This document shows, in pieces, positions 22,211-60,705 of a stretch of DNA of 64,000 bases. The notes below the pieces were generated by a model that saw only the letters and a program-made list of their open reading frames with translations, was not told the DNA's origin and did not search any database. This DNA is from Branchiostoma floridae. Taxonomy: Eukaryota; Chordata; Leptocardii; Amphioxiformes; Branchiostomatidae. Both the position numbers and the translations under genes were made by a program. The DNA lies in NCBI RefSeq assembly GCF_000003815.2, contig NC_049987.1:16087329-16151328 (forward strand). The letters are read 5' to 3'. Numbering within the stretch: the first letter of the stretch is position 1; each line of letters begins with the position of its first letter.

Positions 22211-22277
22211 GTTGCTGTGGGGATTGTAATGTTTTTTGGAAGATGGGTCTTCGCAAAGAGTAATGATTGATTTTTAT

Positions 22278-22347
22278 ATTTCAGCCATACCGTAGGTATG
22301 TTGAAATATATTGTTATATTTCAGCCATACCATAGGTATAATGAAAT
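22278..22347 (+). repeat. Two adjacent copies of the 30-bp CCATACC palindrome
   Basis: ATTTCAGCCATACCGTAGGTATGTTGAAAT (22278-22307) and a second copy at 22318-22347 stand head-to-tail, 40 bp apart. Each has mutated one position of one arm. They lead into the CTTCTTTCT-rich run and the AATGACTTGAAATTTGGCAC core at about 22440. Confidence 0.85.
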
Positions 22348-23160
22348 ATATTGTATTCGTAATGTTTCTTCTTTCTTTCTCTTTTTCCCTTCCCTTTTTC
22401 CAAATCTTCAAAACACGATATATCCGTCGTACCTAGGCTGAATGACTTGAAATTTGGCACAAGGGTAGAGTGGGCCAATACCCTCAGACGTGTCTTTCAT
22501 TTTTGTCATATCTGCCCATTATTAAATGATTCTATTGAGGTTATTTCGCAATTTTTAGAACAAAACTGTAAATTTTGGCTCTGTACCCTCGTATTAAATC
22601 AGAATGACCTGAAATTTGGCACAGGGGTGCCTTGATTATATAAAACACATAAAGGCAATAACAGTTTTGGCATACAGTACATCGAAATGCATAATTTTGC
22701 GATTTTTAAAGAAGTTTTTGAGAAAAAAAAACAGTTTTTGGCTCCTGTACACTGATTTTACAACCAATTGAGCTAATATCTTGTATAGAAGTACGCTTTA
22801 CATATGCGCACAACAATTCAATAACACTTTTGGCATACAGTACATCAAAATGCGTAATTTTGCGATTTCTTGACAAAAAATGACACTTTTGGCTCCTGTA
22901 CACTGGTTTTGCAACCAAATGACCTACATTTTGGTACATGGGTGTACTAGATATTAATTCAAATGGCCAATGTATTATTTCCGGAATGAAGCACTTCAAA
23001 ATGATTTCATGTTGATTTTTTGGGTCCTTTTCCGATGACCACAGGGTCAATGACCTCAAGGTTGTTGACCCATTTTAAGGCTTTCTCACTTGCAGAATTG
23101 TATGCAAGTATCAAAAAGGAAACTAATCACTTAGCCCGAATCAATATCGTGATGAGGATT
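22348..23160 (+). repeat. Tandem array, period about 160-170 bp, type 1
   Basis: Units share 'TTTTTGGCTCCTGTACACTG ... AATGACCTGAAATTTGG ... GGCATACAGTACATC' (about 22600, 22740, 22800, 22870). This is the reverse complement of the 162-bp unit in the NXPE intron (40.1-42.2 kb), so both belong to one superfamily. Confidence 0.7.
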
Positions 23161-23660
23161 TGGCAGCCAATCAGCCGGCCTTGTTTTAGATGGAAGAGCC
23201 CATTGTTAAACAGAGGGGTCCATTTTTTTAAAATTCATCTTTGGACTGGGGATTATGTAGAGAAAGTTTCAGTGGGTCTACTTTTGGACTGGTCTATTTT
23301 GCAATTTTACATGGGGTGTGCTGGAAGAGTCCATTCTTGAACGAAGGGGGATTTTTTTCAATTTATATTTTGGACTTTGGTGACTACTATTATATCAAAG
23401 TCTCTCAGTGGGGTTATTTTTGGACCGGTCTAATTTGCAATTTGACTTGGTGTGTACTGGAAGAGTGCATTCTTGCATGGAGGGGAAACTTCTTTAAAAA
23501 TCCATTTTTGGACTTTGGTGACTATTTCAGTCTTTCAATGGAGTTATTTTTGGACTAGTCTAATTTGGAATTTTACAAGGGGCGTGCTTGAAGAGTCCAT
23601 TCTTGCACAATGGTATTTTTGTCCATTCTTGCACAGGGGGATATTGTAAGATTCATTTTT
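23161..23660 (+). repeat. Tandem array, period about 130 bp, type 2
   Basis: Units read 'GGAAGAGTCCATTCTTGCAC ... TTTTTGGACTGGTCTATTTTGCAATTTTACATGG'. The AGAG starts are at 23195, 23325, 23462 and 23592 (steps 130, 137, 130). Overlapping plus-strand frames (about 100 codons) exist only because the unit is nearly stop-free in some frames. Confidence 0.8.
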
Positions 23661-24180
23661 TTGGTTGAAATGTGATTAGTAAAAGTGATTTTTCAAATTG
23701 GTTATTTTGTTGTTACATGTGGAAGGAGATGGCTGAAATATGCTGTATTTGCTTTCAAGTCGGCCTAATGACCTAAACTTTCGTATAGGAGTGCTCTCTA
23801 CATATGCGCACATGGATTCAACAACAATTTGGGCATACCGTACAACATAATGCTTAATTTTGTGATTCCTTTGTCGATTTTTTTGACAAAAATAGGACAT
23901 TTTTGGCTCCTGTACCCTCGTTTCACAGCCAAATGACCTGTGATTTGGCAAAGGGGTGCTCTAGAAATCTATTCAAATGACCCATGTATAATTCTTGGCA
24001 TAAACCACTTTATAATTATATATTTGGGGATTTTGTAGGTCATTTCCCAATGGCCAGAGAGGTCAATGACCTCAAGGTCGTTGACCCCCACCGTCAGCAC
24101 GTGCACATGTCTATATAACTTAATTAGAAACTAATTTGGCAACCATTTGTGTAGGCTGATTCAATATTCTGTGTAGGTTA
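23661..24180 (+). repeat. Type 1 units again
   Basis: 'TTTTTGGCTCCTGTACCCTCG' and 'AATGACCTGTGATTTGGCAAAGG' (about 23900-23955), plus GGTCAATGACCTCAAGGTCGTTGACC (about 24060), mirror 22740-23070. The order type 1 then type 2 therefore occurs twice. Confidence 0.65.
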
Positions 24181-25250
24181 CCAAAGCCAGTCAGTGAGCC
24201 TGTTGTAATCTGGAAGAGTCCATTCCTGCACGAAGGGGTTATCTTTTTAAATTCCTCTTTGGACTAGTGATTATGTAAAGTCCTTCAGTGGGAGTATTTT
24301 TGGACTGGTCTATTTTGCAAATTTACATGGGATGTGCTGGAATCGTCCATTCTTGCACGGAGGGGGTATTTTTAAAAAAAGAATCATTTTTGGACTTCCA
24401 TGATGATGTCAAAGTCCTATTTTAGCGGATGTATTTTTGCACTGGTCCTCTTTACATAGGGGTATCACAGGAAGAGTCCATTCTTGGACGGATGGGGATT
24501 TTTTCAAATTCAGTTTTGGATGGGTGATGATTCAAAATTCCATTTTTAGCAGAAGTGTTTTTAGACTGGTCTATTTTACCTTTTCATGCACGGACATCTT
24601 TTGCTAAGTTTTATTTTGGACTGGGTTTCTTATTCAAAGGCCATGTTTTTAGCGGGAGTATTTCTGGACTGGTCTTTTGTGCAAATCCCAACGGGATGCA
24701 CTCAAAGAGTCCATCCTTGCACAGGGTAATTTTTTTAAGATTCCTTTTTGGGCTAAACTGTGCTAAGTAAAGGTGATTTTTAAGCAGAAGTGTTGCGTTT
24801 TCATACATGGGTGTTTTTGGAACTGTCTATTGTTGCATGGGGAGGGAGATGGCTGAAATATGCTGTATTTGCTCTCAAGCTACTGTCGGCCTTTCTAGTC
24901 GGTTGCTTTTTTGCATTGTATCTTTGGACCTGGATTTTAAAGAAGTGGAACTATAGCAGGTGTCTTGAACATACCATGATACTGCGCATGTGTAGCATGG
25001 ACATGTAGGACTAAGAAACAGATAAGGTGGTAGACGTAGAGAGTACAAAAGAATCTCCCTGATGAACAGCATCCATCGTAAAAACTTAAGCACTTACCAA
25101 CGTTGCTCTTCCTTCCTCCGTTCATAAACTATTAACCACACTCCCCACCAAAGCCCTACCATTACACAACACCCACTACAAACGCTCTGGATATTTCATG
25201 AAAGTATGAGGTCTACGAACTCTTGTTTTGATATTTTTTCATATCTGCCT
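24181..25250 (+). repeat. Type 2 units and family end
   Basis: AGAG(T)CCATTCTTG units occur at about 24215, 24341, 24473 and 24707, more diverged than in the first block. The sequence closes at about 25187-25225 with ATATTTCATGAAAGTATGAGGTC, also found near 18011 and 18833, a likely shared 3-prime end of the element. Confidence 0.6.
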
Positions 25251-31301: not shown

Positions 31302-31383
31302 GTACATACTTGCATAGACGCTTCTGAAAATACAACCATGGAGGTAAAATATTAAAGATTTTAAATGACTTCATTTGTTACAG
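29258..31383 (+). other. Sulfotransferase intron, repeat-filled
   Basis: 2126 bp, GTAAGC to TTTGTTACAG. It contains a TATG/TG microsatellite (about 29850-29900), a diverged dispersed repeat (about 29930-30790, with GGTACTGCAGCGGACCTTCC and GCATAATTAATGAAAC), a poly-C run (about 30092-30106), a short LINE- or SINE-like tail (about 30335-30455, ending AATAAAAATAATAAATAG) and a CA repeat at 31261-31300. Confidence 0.75.
31261..31300. repeat. (CA)n microsatellite
   Basis: Uninterrupted CA dinucleotides, about 20 units, 84 bases upstream of the exon 2 acceptor of the sulfotransferase gene. Confidence 0.95.
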
Positions 31384-32635
31384 AAGCCATCACGGACCCA
31401 ACACCTGCAACTCCAAAACAAAGCTTGCTTTTATCAATGTGCACAAAGCTTCCAGTGGTACCATCATGCAGGTCATACAGCGATTCGGCTATCTGCGGAA
31501 ACTTTCATTCGTGCAGCATATATCAAAAGATGTTAATGGTTTATATCCTGACGGCCTGTCGAAGCCTGAAATACTTATGCCACCACAAGGAGAAAATTAC
31601 GATATACTCACATACCACACCGTGTACGATCGTCCCAACATCGTACGTCTACTAACGCCGGATGCTAAATTTGTCACGATACTCAGAGAACCATTTAAGC
31701 ACTTTGCTTCTGCATTCGCCTTCTATGGTTACAATAAGACAATCAATGTCACTGCTCCAAATCAATTAGAAGAGTTCTTAGAAAACCCCGGTTTTTACGA
31801 TAACCTGACAAAACGATCTCCCATGCTATTCCCGGCAAAAAAACCGATGGCCGTGGATCTAGGTTTCTCTTCAGACTTGTTTTCCCCATCTCTTCAGATG
31901 AACAAAATTGGCCACATCACCAGGAAATTTATAGATAAACTCTCTCATGAGTTTGACCTCGTGATGATGGCGGAGCACATCGATGAATCATTGGTGCTTT
32001 TGAGGCGTCTGATGTGTTGGGACCTTAAAGATATTTTGTACTATAAGTACGTCAGCAATGATCACTCTTCAGACTATGATACCAGTAATATCTCGCAAAG
32101 ACTAAGGGACAATCATGAGAAGTGGGATGCCGTAGACTATGCACTTTATAAATACTTTAATGAGACAATGTGGAAGAAAATATCCATTGAGGGGAAAAGC
32201 TTTGTTGAGGAACTGGCACATTTCCGGGACGTTGAATTAAAGTTGAGAGTTCACTGCAGCTCAGAATACTCGGCCCTGGAACCTATTGTCATCTCGGAAA
32301 CACCTTGGAACTCACCGTTCAAAATCGACTCAGAATATTGCACTTGGCTGACAACTTCTCACCTCTGTTACTACTACCTGATTAAAGACAGAAACAGAAG
32401 GTACCAAGCCGGATCAAAGGGACTCATGGGAAATGACACAGTCCCGAGGGATGGGGTTTTCTTTTCCCCGCCATACTGCAGTACGGAGTGCGACAAGATA
32501 AAGCAAGAATGCTCCCTTCATGAGTACGTGCAGCACTGTTACCAGGAGGGGTTGTTGAGAAAGTCACAGTCCAGTTCGCAGAAAATAAAGTTCCTTTCTG
32601 TTGAGGGGGAATTCGAAGCCCTACCGCTTGAGTAG
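31384..32635 (+). CDS. GAL3ST: Galactose 3-O-sulfotransferase, coding exon 2 (catalytic domain)
   Basis: Golgi enzyme of the Gal-3-O-sulfotransferase family, which transfers sulfate from PAPS to the 3-OH of galactose on glycolipids or glycoproteins. The exon follows TTTGTTACAG and completes codon 64. The joined protein has 480 residues, against about 420-490 in the family. Visible motifs: the 5-prime PAPS-binding loop KLAFINVHKASSGT (77-90); YDILTYHTVYDR (about 136-147); the 3-prime PAPS-binding segment FVTILREPFKHFASAF (160-175, Ser173); and LVMMAEHIDESLVLLRRLMC followed by WDLKD, a family signature. N-glycosylation sequons include NKT and NVT (about 181-187). The ORF appears to begin at a GTG, but that is inside the domain (Val83); the true start is in exon 1. 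No stop or frameshift is seen, so the gene is probably functional. Acceptor preference (galactosylceramide or glycan) cannot be read from sequence. Confidence 0.93.
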
Positions 32636-33919: not shown

Positions 33920-34513
33920 TTTCTTGAAGTAAGAAAGTATTCTTGATGTAAGGACTGAAAAGTAAGAAAACATTGCTGGCAATAAGAATGTTTGCTCTTG
34001 ATGTAGGAAAATATTTTGTCTTGATGTAAGAACATTTATCTTAGAAGTAAGAAAGCCTTTTTAGGCAAAAAGATTGTACACTTTCAATGTAAGAAAAATA
34101 TTCTTGATGTAAGAACATTCATCTTTGAAGTCTAAGAATAATTTCTAGGCAGTTAATTAATATAAGAATGTATGCTCTTGAAGTAAGTATACTTGATGTA
34201 AGAACATTATCTTAAAAGTAAGAAATCATTTTTATGCAATAAGAATGTATGCTCTTGAAGTAAGGAATGTATTCTTGATGTAAGAACATTTATCTTAGAA
34301 GTGAGAAAACCTTTCTAGGCAATAACAATGTATGCTCTTGAAAATACTCTTGATGAAAGAACATTTCTCTGAAAAGTAAGAAAACCTTTCTGGGCAATAA
34401 CAATGTATGCTCTTGAAGTAAGAAATGTATTATTGACGTAAGAACATTTATCTTAGAAGTAAGAAAACCTTTCTAGGCAATAAGAATGTATATGCTCTTA
34501 AAAATTTTCTTGA
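33920..34513. repeat. About 83-bp tandem repeat, seven units
   Basis: The unit is approximately TTCTTGATGTAAGAACATTTATCTTAGAAGTAAGAAAACCTTTCTAGGCAATAAGAATGTATGCTC-TTGAAGTAAG (shown by its phases). CTTGATGTAAGAACATT occurs near 34020, 34103, 34191, 34274, 34350 and 34430. The strand is purine-rich, with GTAAGAA three times per unit. Confidence 0.85.
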
Positions 34514-35800
34514 TGTCAACTTTGTTTGGAAGGATAGAAAAGACAGACTCAAAAGAGATGTGATAAGCCAGCCCCCTGGATTGGGAGGACTAAATATATT
34601 AAACCTAGATTAAAATAAAAATGCTCAGTTATCATATTGGCTAACATCAGAAGACATCTGTAGATCGAAAGCCCTTGTGTACCTCCATTCTTTTGGCCCT
34701 AGTAACGTGATACTAGAAAAGAAATTTAAAACTGAAAGTGATGGCTCAAACCTAAACAAAATTCCCATTTTTTTGCGTACAAGTCATACAATTGTAAGGG
34801 TGTCAGGACCTGGCCTGAACCCTGCTGTGATCTCCGTGTGATTCAGGCGACAATGTGTCAAAGTTCTGCTCAATTGCCTTTATTCTTCTCATGGTCGATT
34901 GTGATGGCCGTTGTTTACAATGAGTATCATTTCCCACTCTAAGTTGGCAAAGTCCAAAATGCTGCTTTCTTTCTCTGAGTCCCAGCTTTCAGGTTTTTCC
35001 AATATCAATTTTTAAACTGCTCAGAATTTTCGGCACGAAACAACTGCATCCCCTGAATGGAGTGTTTTTTATCTATCTTCTAAATATAGGGCTAAGCTAA
35101 TACCGCATAAGCTTAAGGTTAATCTTATGTGAATCCCTAATAGATTAATGACTTCTCAAAAGCCCGTAACTTCAGTGACATTGAATAGTAAGGCATAAGA
35201 AAACCAATTAATTTGTCATTAAAAAGCTCCTTGGAGTCTACCGGAAGGTCAATCTGGAGAAGTCGTAAACTTTTGACTCGGTCAACCCTCGGGCTATATA
35301 CCCCCTGGAACTGCTTTGGGAACAACCGGCCAAAACTTTCTACCGAACGCTCGAATGTAACGGTCAATCTTTTTGGACTGTACCAGCTCAAAGAGAGGGG
35401 ACGAGCAACATATATTCTGTCAGTCTAGACCACGACACACCACAAAGCAATAACTCAGTTTAGAATCAGTAGCCATACATTGGATATTGAAACAAGCAGA
35501 TACTACAATATAGCCCCTGACCAAAGGTTCTGTCCATTCTGCCCAAAGCATATTGAAGATGAATTTCACTTTAGAATGGAATGTTCTAGAAACACTAGTT
35601 TACGCAATGAATTATTCATATTTGTCGAATCAAGTACAGCAGAATTCAAGAGACCCAATGCTACAGACAGATTTGTATATATCTTTAGATGTCAGAACTC
35701 CCATACTGATGCAAAAATAGGCAAATATATCAAGGACTGCTCTGCTATTAGAAAGAATACCGTAACTAATGATGAGCCTACTCCATTGTAATACTATATC
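34514..35800 (+). mobile_element. LINE relic with reverse-transcriptase C-terminal pieces
   Basis: The left piece (34518-34613) reads FVWKDRKDRLKRDVI...GLGGLNILNLD, the 'F-V/I-W-K ... K-R ... G-G-L' segment that follows the reverse transcriptase in L1-like LINEs. The right piece (about 35440-35791) reads RISSHTLDIETSRYYNI, then FCPFC, then EDEFHFRMEC, the C-terminal zinc-knuckle region (CxxC ... H ... C). Between them lies about 800 bp without clear homology, so the two pieces may come from two insertions or from one with a nested insert. Both are open only over short spans. Confidence 0.6.
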
Positions 35801-39201: not shown

Positions 39202-39992
39202 CTACTGTTCAATATTTGTCAACATTTCGGGACATATGTAAGACATAAGAATGTTCAATTCGTTGTCTTGCACATGCTGATTCGGATGTATATTGTGAGG
39301 ATACCACTGGCTAACTGTCATATCCCACACGTCTAAAATGGCGACGTTCAAATCTCCGAGAATGCTCCTCATTTCATGGTCTATTTGTTGTGCCAGCCAG
39401 TCTGACTGCTGGACGACTGACCTGTAGCTACGATGGCTCCGTGTGTTGCACGTCTTTACGATAACTTTGGTCTTGGGATACTTCCTGTGAAGCTCTTGTA
39501 TCGCCAACTTCACCTCGATCATGCGGGAACTGTAGACGTGTTTGGGTTCGGCTACGAAATGTGCACACAAGCTCAACACAAGCACAACGTTAGGACCACC
39601 GGCCATACTCCTGACTTCTACAGAAATTCCAGATTCACTTAAGTTGCGAAATGGGAACCAGCTTCCAGTTTGGATAGGAAGAGTGTGGAAGTTAAATGTA
39701 ACCATAATTCCCCTGCTGTGGTTGGTGGCGGTGTACGGGCCGATAAGGCTGTTTCCTGCACCTCTCTGTACAACTTTCCACTTTACTAGACGCTCAACCC
39801 ATTGTCTACAAGTAGAGTCGCCTCTGACGTGCACTGTGTGGTTAGTTAGACATTCTGTAACGTTCTGCGGGCTGAACTGCCGAACCTGACAAGAAAGCGA
39901 ATGCCATTTGCCATGGAGCCAGAATCCCTCGGGGTGTTTGTGTGGAATTCCAGGTTTACAAAACGGGAAAGAGTGCATCACAGTTCTGTTTT
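39202..39992 (-). CDS. NXPE: NXPE family protein, last coding exon (esterase-like domain)
   Basis: The terminal exon on minus follows a textbook acceptor (TTTCCCTCCCACGTTTTCTTCCAACAG-type tract) and encodes residues 231-492 plus the stop. It contains the NXPE C-terminal PC-esterase/SGNH-like domain: CKPGIP...GFWLHGKWHSLSC (about 241-264), the Gly-Asp-Ser block VRGDSTCRQWVERLV (about 285-299, catalytic-type Ser289), GGPNVVLVLSLCAHF, and a late D/H block with WDMTVSQWYPHNIHPNQHV. The family is secreted or Golgi-anchored, and some relatives act on glycan acetyl groups, but its biochemical role is largely unsettled. The frame upstream of the acceptor stays open into the intron as far as about 40215, which would make the exon look too long. 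NXPE genes are commonly multi-copy in lancelets. Confidence 0.92.
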
Positions 39993-40117
39993 CTGTTGGA
40001 AGAAAACGTGGGAGGGAAATTATAATAACTGGGCTCGATATTACTTTACAGCTAACAATTTTTAAATGTACGTATCTAGTATCCATGGTTACAAGTTTTA
40101 TTGTAAAAAAAAACATT

Positions 40118-41192
40118 TGCGACATTTGCTTAGGAGCAAATACAGCATATTGCAATCCATATTCATCCTGGAAAGAAATCCCAAAATTCAACAATTTGAA
40201 GTAATGTATGCCCAAAGGGAAAATAAAGTACGGTGGGCACTTGTCCTACACACTTTCATGCCAAATTTCAGGTCATTAGGTTTTCATACAAGGGTATAGG
40301 AGCCAATAATATACATTTTTTTGTCAAAAATGGCCGAAAAACCCGAAATAACTCATTTTTAAGTGATCTGTGAAGAAGGTGTTGATGGCACCCTGTGCTC
40401 ATATGTCCAATTTACCTATATACCAAATTTCAGGTCGTTTGGTTTACATACAAGGGCATAGAAGCCAAAAATATACATTTTTAGTCAAAAATGGCAAAAA
40501 ACTTAAAATAACAAATTTTTGAAGTGATCTATGAAGAAAGTGTCAATGGGGTCCTGTGAGCATATGTTCAATGCACCTCTGTACCAAATTTTAGGTCATT
40601 TGGTTTCTATACAAGGGCATAGGAATAAAAAATATACATTTTTAGTCAAAAATGGCCAAAAGCCCTAAAATAACTCATGTTTGGAGTAAACAATGAATAA
40701 AGCGTTGATGGGGTTCTGTGGTCATATATCAAACGCACCTATGTACCAAATTTCAGGTCATTTGGTTTTAATACAAGGGCATAGGAGCCAAAAATATACA
40801 TTTTTAGTCAAAAATGGCCAAAAACCCTAAAATAACTAATATTTGAAGTGATCTATCAAGAAAGTGTTGATGATTTTCTGTGCTCATATGTCCAATGCAC
40901 CTCTGTACCAAATTTCAGGTCATTAGCTTGTAATACCAGGGCACAGGGGCCCAAAATATACATATTTTGTCTAAAAATGACCAAAAACCCTAAATATCAT
41001 AAATTCTAAGGCCTCTATCAAGAAAGTGAATAAAAGTTCTGAGGGGTTTTGCTATTTCTACCACCCTGCCAAATTTCAGCTCATTTGACCCAAAAATGAA
41101 AAAGTTAATCCCATTTGAAGATTTTGACAGGAGAAACAAAGGAAAAACAGTATATTGCATCCATACTGTAGTATGGATTGCAATATAACTAG
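40118..41192 (-). repeat. Hairpin-bounded 162-bp tandem array, copy 1
   Basis: Begins with the hairpin ATTTGCT-TAGG-AGCAAAT (40124-40141). Tandem units follow; their CCAAATTTCAGG marks lie at 40261, 40422, 40583, 40746, 40908 and 41069 (steps 161, 161, 163, 162, 161). It ends with the palindrome TATATTGCATCCATACT/AGTATGGATTGCAATATA (41151-41187) and CTAG (41189-41192). The near end also carries ATTGCAATCCAT (about 40149), matching one palindrome arm. Confidence 0.9.
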
Positions 41193-41202
41193 AAAGGCCG
41201 AC

Positions 41203-42250
41203 ATTTGCTTAGGAGCAAATACAGCATATTGCAATCCATCAATCCATCTTCATCCTTGGAAAAATCCCAAAATTCAACAGTTTGAAGTAATGTTTGCTCA
41301 AAGAGAAAATGAAGTACTGTGGGCACTTGTCCTATAACCTTCATGCCGAATTTTAGGTCAATTGGTTTCAATACAAGAGCATAGCAGCCAAAAAATATAC
41401 ATTTTTTAGTTAAAAATGGCTAAAAATCCCAAAATAACTCATTTTATAAGTGCTCTATGAAAAAAACTGTCAATGGGATCCTGTTACATACAAGGGCATA
41501 GAAGCCAAAAATATACATTTTTAGTCAAAAATGACTGAAAACCCCAAAATAACTCATTTTTGAAGTGATCTATGAAAGAAAGTGTCAACGGGGTCTTGTG
41601 AGCAAATGTTCAATGCACCTCTGTACCAAATTTCAGGTCATTAGGTTTTCATACAAGGACATAGGAGCAAAAAATATACATTTTTAGTCAAAAATGGCCA
41701 AAAACCCTACAATAACTCATTTTTGGAGTAAACAATGAATAAAGCGTTGATGGGGTTCTGTGGTCATATGTCAAACGCACCTATGTACCAAATTTCAGGT
41801 CATTTGGTTGTAATACAAGGGCATAGGAGCCAAAAATAGACATTTTTAGTCAAAAATGTCCAAAACCCCTAAAATAACTAATTTTTGAAGTAATCTGTGA
41901 AGAAAGTGTTGATGGTTTTCTTTGTTCTTATGTCCAATGCACCTCTGTACCAAATTTCAGGTCATTAGGTTGTAATACCAGGGCACAGGGGCCCAAAATA
42001 TACATATTTTGTCTAAAAATGACCAAAAACCCTAAATATCATAAATTCTATGGCCTCTATAAAAAAAGTGAAAAAAAAAACTGGGGGTATTTGCTATCCC
42101 TACCACACTGCCAAATTTCAGCTCATTTGGCCCAAAAATGAAAAAAAGTTGAATCAATTTGAAGATTTGACAGGAGGAGAAGAAGAAACCAAGGAAAAAC
42201 AATATATTGCAATCCCATACTATGTATGGATTGCAATATAATTATGCTAG
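41203..42250 (-). repeat. Hairpin-bounded 162-bp tandem array, copy 2
   Basis: The same layout as copy 1: hairpin ATTTGCT-TAGG-AGCAAAT (41203-41220), ATTGCAATCCAT, tandem units with marks at 41346, 41626, 41788, 41950 and 42111 (one unit lost near 41480), palindrome (42203-42240) and CTAG (42247-42250). Units correspond in order to those of copy 1, so the whole element was duplicated rather than the arrays growing separately. Confidence 0.9.
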
Positions 42251-43050: not shown

Positions 43051-43463
43051 CTGCAATAATTGAAAAATACATCCATTTTTAGAGAAAATATGTTATGTGA
43101 TATACTTCAATACATGCAATCCTCGCCTTTAGCCTATAAAACAACATGGCGATGATGTAACTCATTGCCGGATTATAGCATCAGGTTGAAATCAATGCCG
43201 GCTGCAAGAGAAGAACTGCCTTGGCATGAAATCAGTTGTTCACACTTGCCGGAGATGATATGATGAATCTTACGTTTTAAAACCGACAAGAAATTACCTT
43301 TATCGGAGCTAGCCAACCAAAATTCAGCCAAGTTAAGCCTAAGTACATAATGTATGTATTGACAATACATAATGAGCATAAATTCGTCTGCGAAATACGA
43401 TTCCTTAGATGCTACCTGCAGAATCCGAAGTACAACTCTCCTAAATTATAGCCTATTTCACAC
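43051..43463 (-). other. NXPE intron 1 (of those visible)
   Basis: 413 bp between GTGTGA and TTGCAG. No repeat or coding content is seen. Confidence 0.8.
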
Positions 43464-44086
43464 CTTTCGAAAAGCTGTCGTTCTTCAGAAGTCACCAATT
43501 CATCCACAATGTCTCTGGCTGATTTACACATCTTAATGTTGTCGCAGGTTGTTGTGTTTGGTTTTTGGCAAAACCAAGTGCGGCCTGTGTTTAACACCGA
43601 GAAGTCGCATTGACTTGATGAAGAAAGAGTTCGGCTTGGAAGAATCGTACAAGTCGTCGTCACATCTTCGCCTTCATCTTTGAACCTACAAGACCACCTC
43701 CTCTTGTTTGGAATCTCTCTGAGTTCCTTCAGAAGTTGCACTGCTTCGCTGGAGTGAATAAGCTGTACCTGAGGCATCACATTCCCCGTGAAACTGAGAA
43801 TAAAACTAACAGTGTACAGACCGTTCCCGTGGTCCTGCACCCTACCCTTTGTACTGGCGGTTTGGGCATTGTCTCGTAAAACTGCTTGGAGGTAATCACC
43901 GCCATACAACTTACGTCGTCTGTTGCCGTCCTTTGCTACGACCTCAATGAAAAGAATGTCCCCTATCTGATACATAGGTTTGGGGTTGACGATTGTGACA
44001 GAAGTGTAATTTGGATTGGTGACCCAGGTAAGGTTAATCCTCCGATTCGATGCACGCCAAGTTCCTATTGACGTAACACTGATTAC
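43464..44086 (-). CDS. NXPE: NXPE family protein, first visible coding exon
   Basis: 623 bp on minus after a TTTATGTCTTGTTGACAG acceptor. It encodes residues 1-207 of the visible protein plus two bases. Family features in order: SVTIVNPKPMYQIGD (about 29-43), KDGNRRRKLYGGDYL (52-66; the YGGD block is an NXPE hallmark), VQDHGNGLYTVSF (about 82-94), LIHSSEAV and a Cys-rich stretch (CRFKDEGEDVTTTC, RTWFCQKPNTTTC). This N-terminal module is neurexophilin-like and Ig-fold-like. The frame reads in from the acceptor at phase 0, so at least one further 5-prime exon with the membrane anchor must lie beyond 44086; I could not identify it. Overall 492 residues are visible, compared with about 540 in full members. 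Confidence 0.92.
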
Positions 44087-44500
44087 CTGTCAACAAGACA
44101 TAAAGGTATATTTTCGTTAGCTACAGATTCTATAGCATAACAGAATCAAGGCTGTTTTGCTGTTACAAAACCTCTAGCATTTCGACATTAAGTTTGCCCA
44201 TGTGCATTTCTGTCCTTCTGGTTCCAAGGGACATTGGTGACGAAAACTGATGATAAAAATCACAATTAATGTACAGCTATAAAAACTATAACATAACACA
44301 TTTATGTCGCATAACGCCAGAACGGCTTTAAATTTGATTGGATTTCCTAAAATTTACTTGCCAACGTATTGCAGAAATTTGACCAAAAAAAATTACATTC
44401 TACAACCTTAGGTAAAAATCGCTAATCAGTTCTAACAATGTAATTTTCACAAAAATAAAAGTTTATGTTATCCAGAAAGTCTTTTATTATTGAATATGCA
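44087..44500. other. NXPE upstream intron, unassigned part
   Basis: Nothing supported. The expected N-terminal exon was not recognised here or up to 48 kb. Confidence 0.4.
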
Positions 44501-55060: not shown

Positions 55061-56200
55061 TGCATAATTCTTCATCAAATTTATTGATTGACCTCATATT
55101 CCCGTATATGTTGGAGAGATATAAGTACTTTTAAAAAATCAGACATGATTTCATAAGTCCAGGGAGTTTTGGAATAGGGCCAGGAGTGAATAACCTAACA
55201 TGTGAAAAGAAGCTCAAGTTCCAAGCTGCATATTTCTTCATCAGAAGCATGGATTGACTTGATATTCCAATATATGTTGCTAATATATATGTATTATTGA
55301 TTATTGCCATTTTGTAAAGAAATCAGACAAGTTTCTCTATTTCCGTTATTTTTTAATGTGGCTGGGTACCAATGGCACAAGAGGTCAAATATATGTCAAC
55401 TTTGGATAAGTATTTTTCTTCATCAAAAGTATGGATTGACTTTATATTCCAATATATGTTTTAGAGATATACATACTATTGATTACAGCTATTTTTTCCA
55501 AATCAGAGAATTTCCGTGGATTTCTGAAATGTGCCTGGGTCTGAATGATAAAAAGGGTGAATTCAAGGTCAACTTTGGATGACCATTATTCTTCATCAAA
55601 AGAATGGATTGACTTGATATTTCCATATATGTTGGAGGGATATAAGTACTATTGATTATTGGTATTTTTTCAAATCAGATAAGTTCTTGTATTTCCGTGG
55701 ATTTTTTTATGTGGCTGGGTACCAATGGCACAAGACTCTCAAATATAGGTCAACTTTGGATACGTATTTTTCTTCATCAAAAGTATGGATTGACTTGCTA
55801 TTCCAATATATGTTGGAGACATATACGTGCTGTTGATTATTGCTATTTTTTTGGAAATCAGACAAGTTTTTGTATTTCCGTGGATTTTTGGAATGTGCCT
55901 GGGTCTGAATGACAGAAGGGGCCAATTCAAGGTCAACTTTGGATGACCATTATTCTTCATCAAAAGAATGGATTGACTTGATATTTCCATATATGTTGGA
56001 CACATATAAGTATTATTGAATATTGCTATTTTTTTCAAAATCAGACAAGTTTTTGTATTTTCGTGGAATTTGTGAATGAGCCTGGGTCTAAATGACAGAG
56101 GAGGTCAATTGAAGGTCAACTTCCAGTCTCTTTTTTTCTTCATCAAAAGCATTGGATTTGCTTCATATTGCCTCATATGCTGTACCATTCTATCTACTAA
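55061..56200 (+). repeat. About 183-bp tandem array with alternating A/B units
   Basis: TTCATCAAA marks lie at 55071, 55237, 55419, 55592, 55773, 55956 and 56139 (steps 166, 182, 173, 181, 183, 183). Units of type A carry GGCTGGGTACCAATGGCACAAGA (about 55363, 55713); type B carry TGCCTGGGTCTGAATGA (about 55535, 55895, and 56080 in variant form). The array reads A-B-A-B-B, a higher-order dimer of about 360 bp. Apparent ORFs of up to 99 codons on both strands follow the unit. Confidence 0.88.
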
Positions 56201-59440: not shown

Positions 59441-59453
59441 GGGTCTCACTAAA

Positions 59454-59690
59454 TACCGAAAACAACCGAAAACAACCGAAAACAACTTTCACTAAATACC
59501 GAAAACAACCGAAAACAACTTTCACTAAATACCGAAAACAACCGAAAACAACTTTCAGTAATTACCGAAAACAACCGAAAACAACCGAAAACAACTTTTA
59601 ACTACCGAAAACAACCGAAAACAACTTTTAACTACCGAAAACAACCGAAAACAACTTTTAACTACCGAAAACAACTCGACACAACCATAA
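59454..59690 (+). repeat. Left terminal array of ACCGAAAACA units
   Basis: About 20 units, interrupted by CTTTCACTAAAT or CTTTTAACT spacers, so a second-order unit of about 30-45 bp is visible. Confidence 0.9.
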
Positions 59691-60483
59691 ACAACAGACA
59701 ATCATTTCAATGGGTTATTATTTAATAATTTTGATTTTATTTTGGACAGAAGTTAGGCTAGGACGACCCATGTTATTAATACAATATTAGTAATAATAGA
59801 GTCAACGATCTCCTTTGCCTTTTGGAATATATTAATGTTCGAATTCAGATTCACGGATCCTGTAAGTATCCTGTATGTTATAAACGGGGACTGCTTGGTT
59901 AACTCGCAAACTCATCAATGGATATCTATACTACTTGGCATCTATTGTGTAACTCCAAGCAGAGGTTACGGTGGAGCGGGGGTGTAGTAGTGGCCCCAAC
60001 ATGAAATCGCAGTCACTACTATCCCCCGACAAAACTGCTTCTAAAATGGGTTTGCTTATCAATTATTGTTGAATCTGCCTGCTGCGCATTACTTCATGTG
60101 TACTACATTTTCTTCTAGCAACCAAAACAATCTAGTACATTTCTTGCTCAATAATAACGCATTCCGCCATCACAACAAATCGGTTTAAATGCACAAACCG
60201 CAAACGTGTATTACCACAGAGGCCCCTTATTCTGGATTAAACTAAATGATCAAAATAAAACAGTGTGTGATAGAAAGGTGTTTCCACAGTCTACTTCCCC
60301 TTTGCTGCAAAAATCCTCCAGAATCACCCCATTCTCTCCCTCGACCAAGGAGAAAATAATGCAAGGGATAGTAACGAGTAGATGAAAATAAAATAGCAAT
60401 AAGTAGTTGTTTAAGAGTCATTTTCCGGCTGTTTTGGAGTTCTGATCGGTTGTTCATGCGTGTTTTAGGAGGTTTCGAGTAAC

Positions 60484-60690
60484 TGTTGTTTTCGGTATTT
60501 ATTGAGTTGCTTTCGGTATTTATTGAGGTGTTTTCGGTATTTATGGAGTTGTTTTCGGTAGATATCAAATTGTTTTCATTGTTTTCCGTATTTTACGGGT
60601 TGTTTTCGGTTGTTTTCGGTAGATGTCAAGTTGTTTTCGGTTGTTTTCGGTTGTTTTCGGTTGTTTTCGGTTGTTTTCGGTTGTTTTCGG
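60484..60690 (-). repeat. Right terminal array, inverted
   Basis: TGTTTTCGGT units in inverse orientation to the left array. The outer part (60600-60690) is homogeneous, the inner part (60484-60600) more diverged. Confidence 0.9.
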
Positions 60691-60705
60691 TATTTAGTGA
60701 GACCG

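What the first reader, a model, noticed from the sequence alone, without database searches (positions are those of the whole stretch)
40118..42250. Two complete hairpin / 162-bp array / palindrome / CTAG elements in the NXPE intron
Both copies have the same five parts in the same order: a 7-bp hairpin (ATTTGCT/AGCAAAT), ATTGCAATCCAT, tandem units with a very regular 161-163 bp step, a long terminal palindrome (arms of about 17 bp that repeat ATTGCAATCCAT), and CTAG within 1-6 bases after it. A 3-prime hairpin followed by CTAG, with a subterminal inverted match and a tandem core of about 160 bp, is the layout known for helentron-associated non-autonomous elements. Here it is found in a probable lancelet, arranged head to tail, with units corresponding one by one. 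A step near 162 bp is also close to nucleosome spacing.
Basis: partly seen in the sequence, partly recalled or inferred. Interest (0 to 1): 0.7.

Follow-up and report, generated by a model that had tools for sequence, protein, structure and literature searches.

The report
Lancelet Helentron copies inserted end to end
Two tandem pieces of DNA in a lancelet gene are small rolling-circle transposons (HINEs), and comparison with other copies suggests that such tandems grow because new copies land exactly at the ends of old ones rather than by repeated copying of one unit.

Summary
Other genomic copies show that CTAG belongs to the hairpin end, not to the long palindrome. The elements lie on the minus strand: 5' TT-palindromic subTIR, left module, 162-bp repeats, 3' subTIR, 7-bp hairpin, CTAG 3'. 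The CTAG at 41189 is the 3' end of one copy; the one at 42247 is flanking DNA. The 3' end occurs 2,317 times genome-wide against 0 in a reversed control. Autonomous elements with the same ends carry OTU, DUF6570, Helitron_like_N, PIF1 and endonuclease domains. So these are non-autonomous Helentrons (HINEs), an anatomy known from oyster.

Less expected is how the tandem arises. In 17 of 19 adjacent pairs both copies have a closer relative at another locus, an autonomous Helentron sits inside one array, and copies land at a resident's exact terminus or just behind its 5' palindrome, same orientation in all sequence in hand. Successive self-targeted insertion fits better than a rolling-circle concatemer. 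For the window pair itself, sisterhood is not formally rejected (p-AU 0.106).

The parts
41189..42241 (-). HINE copy WIN_1, complete: 5' TT at 42241, 3' CTAG at 41189-41192
   Evidence: Ends agree with copies at other loci
40120..41188 (-). HINE copy WIN_2; 5' TT at 41188, 3' terminal GCCTTTCTAG missing
42200..42241 (-). 5' palindrome (subTIR plus inverted copy) of WIN_1
   Evidence: folds at z -6.0; occurs as a 42-bp unit, one or several in a row, in other copies
41147..41188 (-). 5' palindrome of WIN_2
   Evidence: folds at z -5.8
41371..42036 (-). 162-bp tandem core of WIN_1 (one unit about 47 bp short)
40261..40994 (-). 162-bp tandem core of WIN_2
41226..41239 (-). 3' subTIR of WIN_1 (ATGGATTGCAATAT on the minus strand), inverted match of the 5' subTIR
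   Evidence: inverted repeat I5
41203..41220 (-). 3' hairpin of WIN_1, 7-bp stem, 14 nt from the 3' terminus
   Evidence: z -1.9 in context
40147..40161 (-). 3' subTIR of WIN_2
   Evidence: inverted repeats I3 and I4
40124..40141 (-). 3' hairpin of WIN_2
   Evidence: z -2.8
41188..41189 (-). Exact head-to-tail junction CTAG|TTATATTGC between the two copies
   Evidence: same junction found 81 times genome-wide with up to 2 mismatches, 0 in the reversed control
42247..42250 (.).
   Evidence: not conserved after the palindrome in other copies

Best explanation
Two non-autonomous Helentrons (HINEs) on the minus strand, most likely moved in trans by lancelet Helentrons that carry the same ends and encode an OTU - DUF6570 - Rep - PIF1 helicase - endonuclease protein. 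The inserted unit is 5'-TTATATTGC...CTAG-3', placed before a T without target-site duplication (shown for copies nested in relatives). The tandem arose by successive insertion of separate copies at the ends of residents of the same superfamily, head to tail (well supported for the arrays read, not proven for every pair or for the window pair alone). Inferred mechanism: the HUH Rep nicks resident copies strand-specifically where it would cut in transposition, at the 5' terminus (N^TT), at the GT just behind the 5' hairpin (TTG^T) and perhaps at the 3' terminus (CTAG^T). These nicks serve as targets, which would fix both position and orientation.
For: Fixed ends in fetched copies and 2,317 exact-type 3' ends, control 0. 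Autonomous elements with both ends on C1 (13,003 bp) and C3 (14,008 bp with 100 N); domains. A-type copies nested in B-type elements in L018, L024 and L026 with joined flanks continuous with B references at the join. Next base T at 77 of 78 3' ends. Of the 78, 38 run into the first 75 bp of a relative (32 by script, 6 added by eye) and 1 clearly plus 1 weakly into a body (sample weighted to arrays). 81 exact head-to-tail junctions in 41 loci; no head-to-head or tail-to-tail junction in the roughly 359 kb in hand. On C1, 17 same- against 2 opposite-orientation neighbours within 5 kb (random 0.55 and 0.54). In 17 of 19 adjacent pairs both members have closer relatives elsewhere; 8 of 15 adjacent pairs rejected as sisters. 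Three of three A-type autonomous 3' ends read run into palindrome-less bodies of relatives.
Against: For the window pair sisterhood is not rejected (p-AU 0.106); 6 further pairs are not rejected, and in 2 of these the forced tree scored slightly higher (no correction for multiple tests). L023 and L028 hold near-identical i, i+2 copies, so some growth is by duplication. Age polarity along arrays, judged by eye, shows no consistent direction. No nicking evidence exists. Genome-wide counts for opposite-orientation junctions could not be obtained. No empty site in ordinary host DNA was found.
Confidence: 0.78

Rival explanations
1. The tandem is a rolling-circle concatemer: one element was copied more than once and inserted as a multimer, the usual reading of head-to-tail Helitron arrays.
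For: Exact end-to-end junctions are also what a circle or concatemer gives; Helraiser makes circles with precise head-to-tail junctions (PMC4778049, passages), and tandem arrays are cited as support for rolling circle (PMC5876387, passages). Window pair not rejected as sisters.
Against: Adjacent copies are no closer than copies at different loci (mean 0.077 against 0.069); 8 of 15 pairs rejected as sisters; arrays mix families A and B and include an autonomous element; stacked and foreign 5' palindromes with the matching body behind are not explained.
Confidence: 0.12
2. Array growth by unequal crossing-over or segmental duplication of a first pair.
For: L023 copies 1/3/5 and 2/4 differ by 0.3-1.2%, L028 copies 1 and 3 by 0.
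Against: Explains only i, i+2 similarity; the first junction of unrelated copies still needs an insertion. Adjacent copies differ by 4-12%.
Confidence: 0.08
3. Plain satellite DNA with ends varying within the array.
For: Regular 162-bp core.
Against: Fixed ends at over two thousand places, short cores inside complete elements, autonomous relatives.
Confidence: 0.01
4. A cut-and-paste or foldback/MITE-type element that happens to carry a tandem core.
For: Long palindromes and inverted subterminal repeats.
Against: No target-site duplication in the nested insertions, asymmetric ends, Rep/helicase partner with the same ends.
Confidence: 0.01

Closest known systems
Cg_HINE elements of the Pacific oyster (PMC7492417; parts 1-3 of 7 of the text read)
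   Same: 5' subTIR plus inverted copy, short left module, satellite-like core of mostly 140-180-bp units, 3' subTIR plus palindrome, no target-site duplication, T-rich sites, dispersed copies, presence in introns.
   Different: Other sequences and host; oyster paper reports TT as preferred site and, in the parts read, no end-to-end arrays or partner element with the same ends.
Helentrons and HINE/DINE-1 (PMC4067079; passages and sections 8 and 11)
   Same: Rep/helicase protein with endonuclease; subTIR near the 5' end and about 38-60 bp from the 3' end (37 here); 3' palindrome of 5-10 bp 8-35 bp from the end (7 bp, 14 nt here); palindromic subTIRs; no target-site duplication.
   Different: Those Helentrons insert within TT with variable T runs; here the ends are 5' TT and 3' CTAG and the site is N^T.
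proto-Helentron of Phytophthora infestans (PMC4067079, section 11)
   Same: 5' TT and 3' CTAG, insertion before T, no target-site duplication, about 14 kb.
   Different: It lacks the endonuclease domain, which the lancelet elements have, and inserts between A and T.
FoHeli elements (Helitron2-like) of Fusarium (PMC5148889; passages and section 10)
   Same: Asymmetric terminal inverted repeats, hairpins, copies with several stacked 5' termini, a self-insertion model; one three-copy tandem in Metarhizium left undecided between insertion into a 5' end and rolling circle.
   Different: Lancelet arrays show the reciprocal halves of the resident and unrelated neighbours, which favour insertion; element sequences and host differ.

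Membership tests
Helentron/HINE | Autonomous partner with Rep, helicase and EEP-type endonuclease and the same ends | tested here: met
   Domains. Both ends present on C1 and C3 elements. Of 8 further Rep loci read 3.5-4 kb downstream (one of them the C3 element), 4 show the complete 3' end (L063, L064, L065 type A; L070 type B), L067 shares the A-type 3' region but the stretch stops short, L068 shows only an internal-type copy of the end, the end in L069 belongs to a separate short B element (433-2135), L066 has none
Helentron/HINE | subTIRs: 5' one within a few nt of the terminus, inverted match about 38-60 bp from the 3' end | tested here: met
   5' subTIR 2 nt from the terminus; 3' subTIR ends 37 nt from it, just below the stated range
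Helentron/HINE | 3' palindrome of 5-10 bp, 8-35 bp from the 3' end | tested here: met
   7-bp stem, 14 nt from the end
Helentron/HINE | No target-site duplication | tested here: met
   A-in-B joins in L018, L024 and L026 continuous with B references; host empty sites not obtained
Helentron/HINE | Insertion within a TT dinucleotide | tested here: inconclusive
   Next base T in 77 of 78, but nested sites are G^T or A^T with the TT belonging to the element; at host sites the first T could be target or element
Helentron/HINE | Monophyly of the Rep/helicase protein with known Helentrons | not tested
   No tree with reference Helentron proteins was built; domain order only
Canonical Helitron (Helitron1) | 5' TC, 3' CTRR, hairpin about 11 bp from the 3' end, insertion between A and T, no endonuclease | tested here: not met
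   3' CTAG and hairpin fit; 5' end is TT, endonuclease domain present, subTIRs present
Satellite DNA | Array without fixed ends | tested here: not met
   Fixed ends
Rolling-circle concatemer | Array members identical at birth, hence sisters | tested here: not met
   17 of 19 adjacent pairs have closer relatives elsewhere on both sides; 8 of 15 rejected as sisters, 7 not, the window pair among these

The most novel reading that the evidence does not exclude
The transposase's own nick sites on resident copies (5' terminus, GT behind the 5' hairpin, 3' CTAG^T) are favoured targets. Head-to-tail arrays of mixed, unrelated Helitron-type copies are then logs of successive strand-specific insertions, and stacked or foreign 5' palindromes record which resident was hit. 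Tandem arrays in this group would no longer count as evidence for rolling-circle concatemers.
Probability: 0.45. Interest if true: 0.7.

Novelty: new variant of a known kind. Interest (0 to 1): 0.5.

Why it matters
HINEs carrying satellite-like repeats are known from molluscs and other animals, so the element itself is not surprising. It adds a lancelet superfamily with identified autonomous partners and a combination of ends (5' TT, 3' CTAG, endonuclease) that PMC4067079 assigns to two different groups. More usefully, its dozens of natural arrays separate two accounts of how tandem Helitron arrays form and name the nucleotide positions to test.

Tried and rejected
Plain satellite: rejected. 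Rolling-circle concatemer for arrays in general: disfavoured. Age polarity along arrays, read by eye from nearest-relative distances: no consistent direction. Co-mobilisation of L018_1 and L024_2 (99.2% alike, both ending CTTT instead of CTAG) with their neighbours: the shared stretch runs on only through the conserved palindrome, so it proves nothing. Patterns meant to tell A-behind-A from A-behind-B palindromes matched the same 24 places at 2 mismatches and were not used. I first counted L068 and L069 as complete Rep-element ends; on re-reading L068 shows only an internal-type copy and L069's end belongs to another short element, so the count fell from six to four. Literature: searches (listings, often only the first 15-20 of the papers found) showed no paper that I recognised as describing Branchiostoma Helentrons; an amphioxus transposon paper (PMC5802833) does not mention Helitron or Helentron in its main text. 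Repbase was not available and may hold entries for these families.

Full report
1. Place. The window lies at C9:16087329-16151328 of a genome of 513,431,437 bases in 431 contigs. Size and genes fit Branchiostoma floridae; that name is recalled, not a tool result. The array lies between frames coding for NXPE4_C (39202-40245) and Neurexophilin (43412-44089) domains, both on the minus strand.

2. Ends. A DNA search with the two-copy stretch listed 99 matches (3069 first-look candidates, 32 scored). I fetched 20 places and compared flanks. Identity starts at CTAGAAAGGCCGAC on the hairpin side and stops at GCAATATAA on the palindrome side. The 3'-end pattern with up to 2 mismatches occurs 1143 + 1174 times, reversed control 0 + 0. 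From the head of that list, skipping one Rep locus, I took 20 ends without regard to arrays. All 20 read CTAG then T; 2 of 20 run into a family member (L088, L090); the other 18 run into sequence not recognised as family DNA, except that one (L075) has a weak match to an element body.

3. Families and partners. Families share the 3' hairpin and CTAG but differ in the 5' palindrome: A (ATATTGCAATCC) and B (ATATTTCAGCCATAC, also in this window at 22314-24884), each with a matching 3' subTIR, and probably C, seen only as the flank of L016. Helitron_like_N (PF14214) gives 79 hits. A B-type autonomous element of 13,003 bp on C1 has both ends; its coding region is split by a stop in the frame read (571 and 1775 aa). 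An A-type element on C3 (9536673-9550680, 14,008 bp with 100 N) has both ends and an open frame of at least 2177 aa with OTU, DUF6570, Helitron_like_N, PIF1 and Exo_endo_phos domains. The C1 frame of 1775 aa has the same set without OTU. Of eight Rep loci read downstream, the C3 one included, four show the complete 3' end (L063, L064, L065, L070). L067 shares the A-type 3' region but the stretch stops short, L068 shows only an internal-type copy of the end, the end in L069 belongs to a separate short B element, and L066 shows none. The first 314 bases of the HINE align at 71% to the 5' region of the C1 element, so the repeat unit may derive from the Helentron's own 5' part.

4. Insertion. In L018, L024 and L026 A-type copies sit inside B-type elements: the B palindrome ending GAAATATATTG in front, TATTCGTAA... 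behind. Joined flanks align to the window B element and to the C1 element without a gap at the join, so no target-site duplication, and the inserted unit begins with TT. L024 has a second insertion nine bases further in (TATTCGTAA^TGTTTC). In L016 an A copy follows a third type of palindrome ending AATATTG.

5. Where copies land in relatives. GGCCTTTCTAG|TTATATTGCAATCC occurs 81 times with up to 2 mismatches (69 perfect, control 0 + 0), in 41 loci, beside 424 A-type 3' ends. Of 78 3' ends with at least 40 bp downstream, weighted to array loci, the script assigned 17 to an exact 5' terminus, 15 to the first 75 bp, 2 to a body and 44 to none. By eye I move L018:1684 and L090 to exact, L018:3884, L026:2770, L023:2763 and L023:4883 to the 5' zone, and L024:1799 from exact to the zone. 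That gives 18 exact and 20 zone, 38 in all, with 2 body, one of them (L075) weak. Some of the 38 are duplicated units, not separate events. Three of the 78 (L062:8784, L068:3921, L070:2936) are internal-type copies of the end within autonomous elements. On C1, 17 consecutive ends within 5 kb share orientation and 2 do not; random 0.55 and 0.54. Sequence in hand holds no head-to-head or tail-to-tail junction.

6. Neighbours are mostly not sisters. Of 43 copies over 850 bp, the nearest relative is an array-mate in 9 of 33 array members: 7 are i, i+2 copies in L023 and L028 (duplicated dimers), 2 are neighbours in L027. Mean distance within arrays was 0.101 against 0.092 with shuffled labels. After dropping L018_2 and L024_4 (far from all), both members of 17 of 19 adjacent pairs have a closer relative elsewhere; adjacent pairs average 0.077, between-locus pairs 0.069. 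The window copies differ by 0.107; the one at 41189-42241 is 0.039 from a copy on C3 and pairs with it at 99/99. In the tree of 37 copies no adjacent pair is drawn as sisters. Forced together, 8 of 15 pairs are rejected at 0.05 without correction; the window pair is not (0.106), and for L005_3/4 and L027_1/2 the forced tree scored slightly higher.

7. Mixed arrays. On C3 four HINEs end in an exact junction with the 5' end of the autonomous element, whose CTAG runs into a B-like 5' zone. All three A-type autonomous ends read run into palindrome-less bodies of relatives. L090 joins a B-type 3' end to an A-type 5' end. A concatemer of one HINE does not make these.

8. Mechanism. Shown: ends, partners, absence of duplication at nested sites, preference for the end zone, head-to-tail orientation in what was read. 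Inferred: Rep's strand-specific nick sites on residents act as targets. An exact junction cannot tell insertion at a resident's 5' end from insertion at its 3' end. The roles of HUH and tyrosine residues are recalled, not tested. Fusarium elements also show multiple 5' termini with a self-insertion model (PMC5148889), while tandem arrays are elsewhere cited for rolling circle (PMC5876387).

9. Verdict. A HINE whose 5' TT/3' CTAG ends and endonuclease-bearing partners combine features that PMC4067079 assigns to different groups; its tandem is best read as successive insertions.

Noticed in passing
window 22275-24884 (+): A related B-type element with two stacked 5' palindromes and the same 3' CTAG end, followed by TCGG; its 3' hairpin has changes. 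A second, damaged 3' end lies near 23727-23760.
   Followed up: partly
window 18099, 18922, 45616 (+): Further B-type 5' palindromes, so the window holds several more remnants of this superfamily.
   Followed up: no
L018 and L024 (copies L018_1, L024_2): Two copies 99.2% alike end in CTTT instead of CTAG, yet both stand exactly before an A-type 5' end; unexplained.
   Followed up: partly
L062 8750-8784, L068 3887-3921, L070 2902-2936 (element orientation): B-type autonomous elements carry an extra hairpin-plus-end copy; in L062 and L070 it lies about 133 bp before the true 3' terminus, perhaps a former terminus.
   Followed up: no
L016 5' flank: A third palindrome type (TATTTTCACTC...GAGTGAAAATATTG) directly before an A-type copy, suggesting a further family.
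   Followed up: no
L023, L028: Near-identical i, i+2 copies: duplicated dimers on top of mixed arrays.
   Followed up: partly
window 31328-32635 (+): Open frame with a Galactose-3-O-sulfotransferase domain.
   Followed up: no
window 34162-34516, 55234-56169, 59445-59695, 60485-60691: Other tandem arrays with different units; not examined.
   Followed up: no
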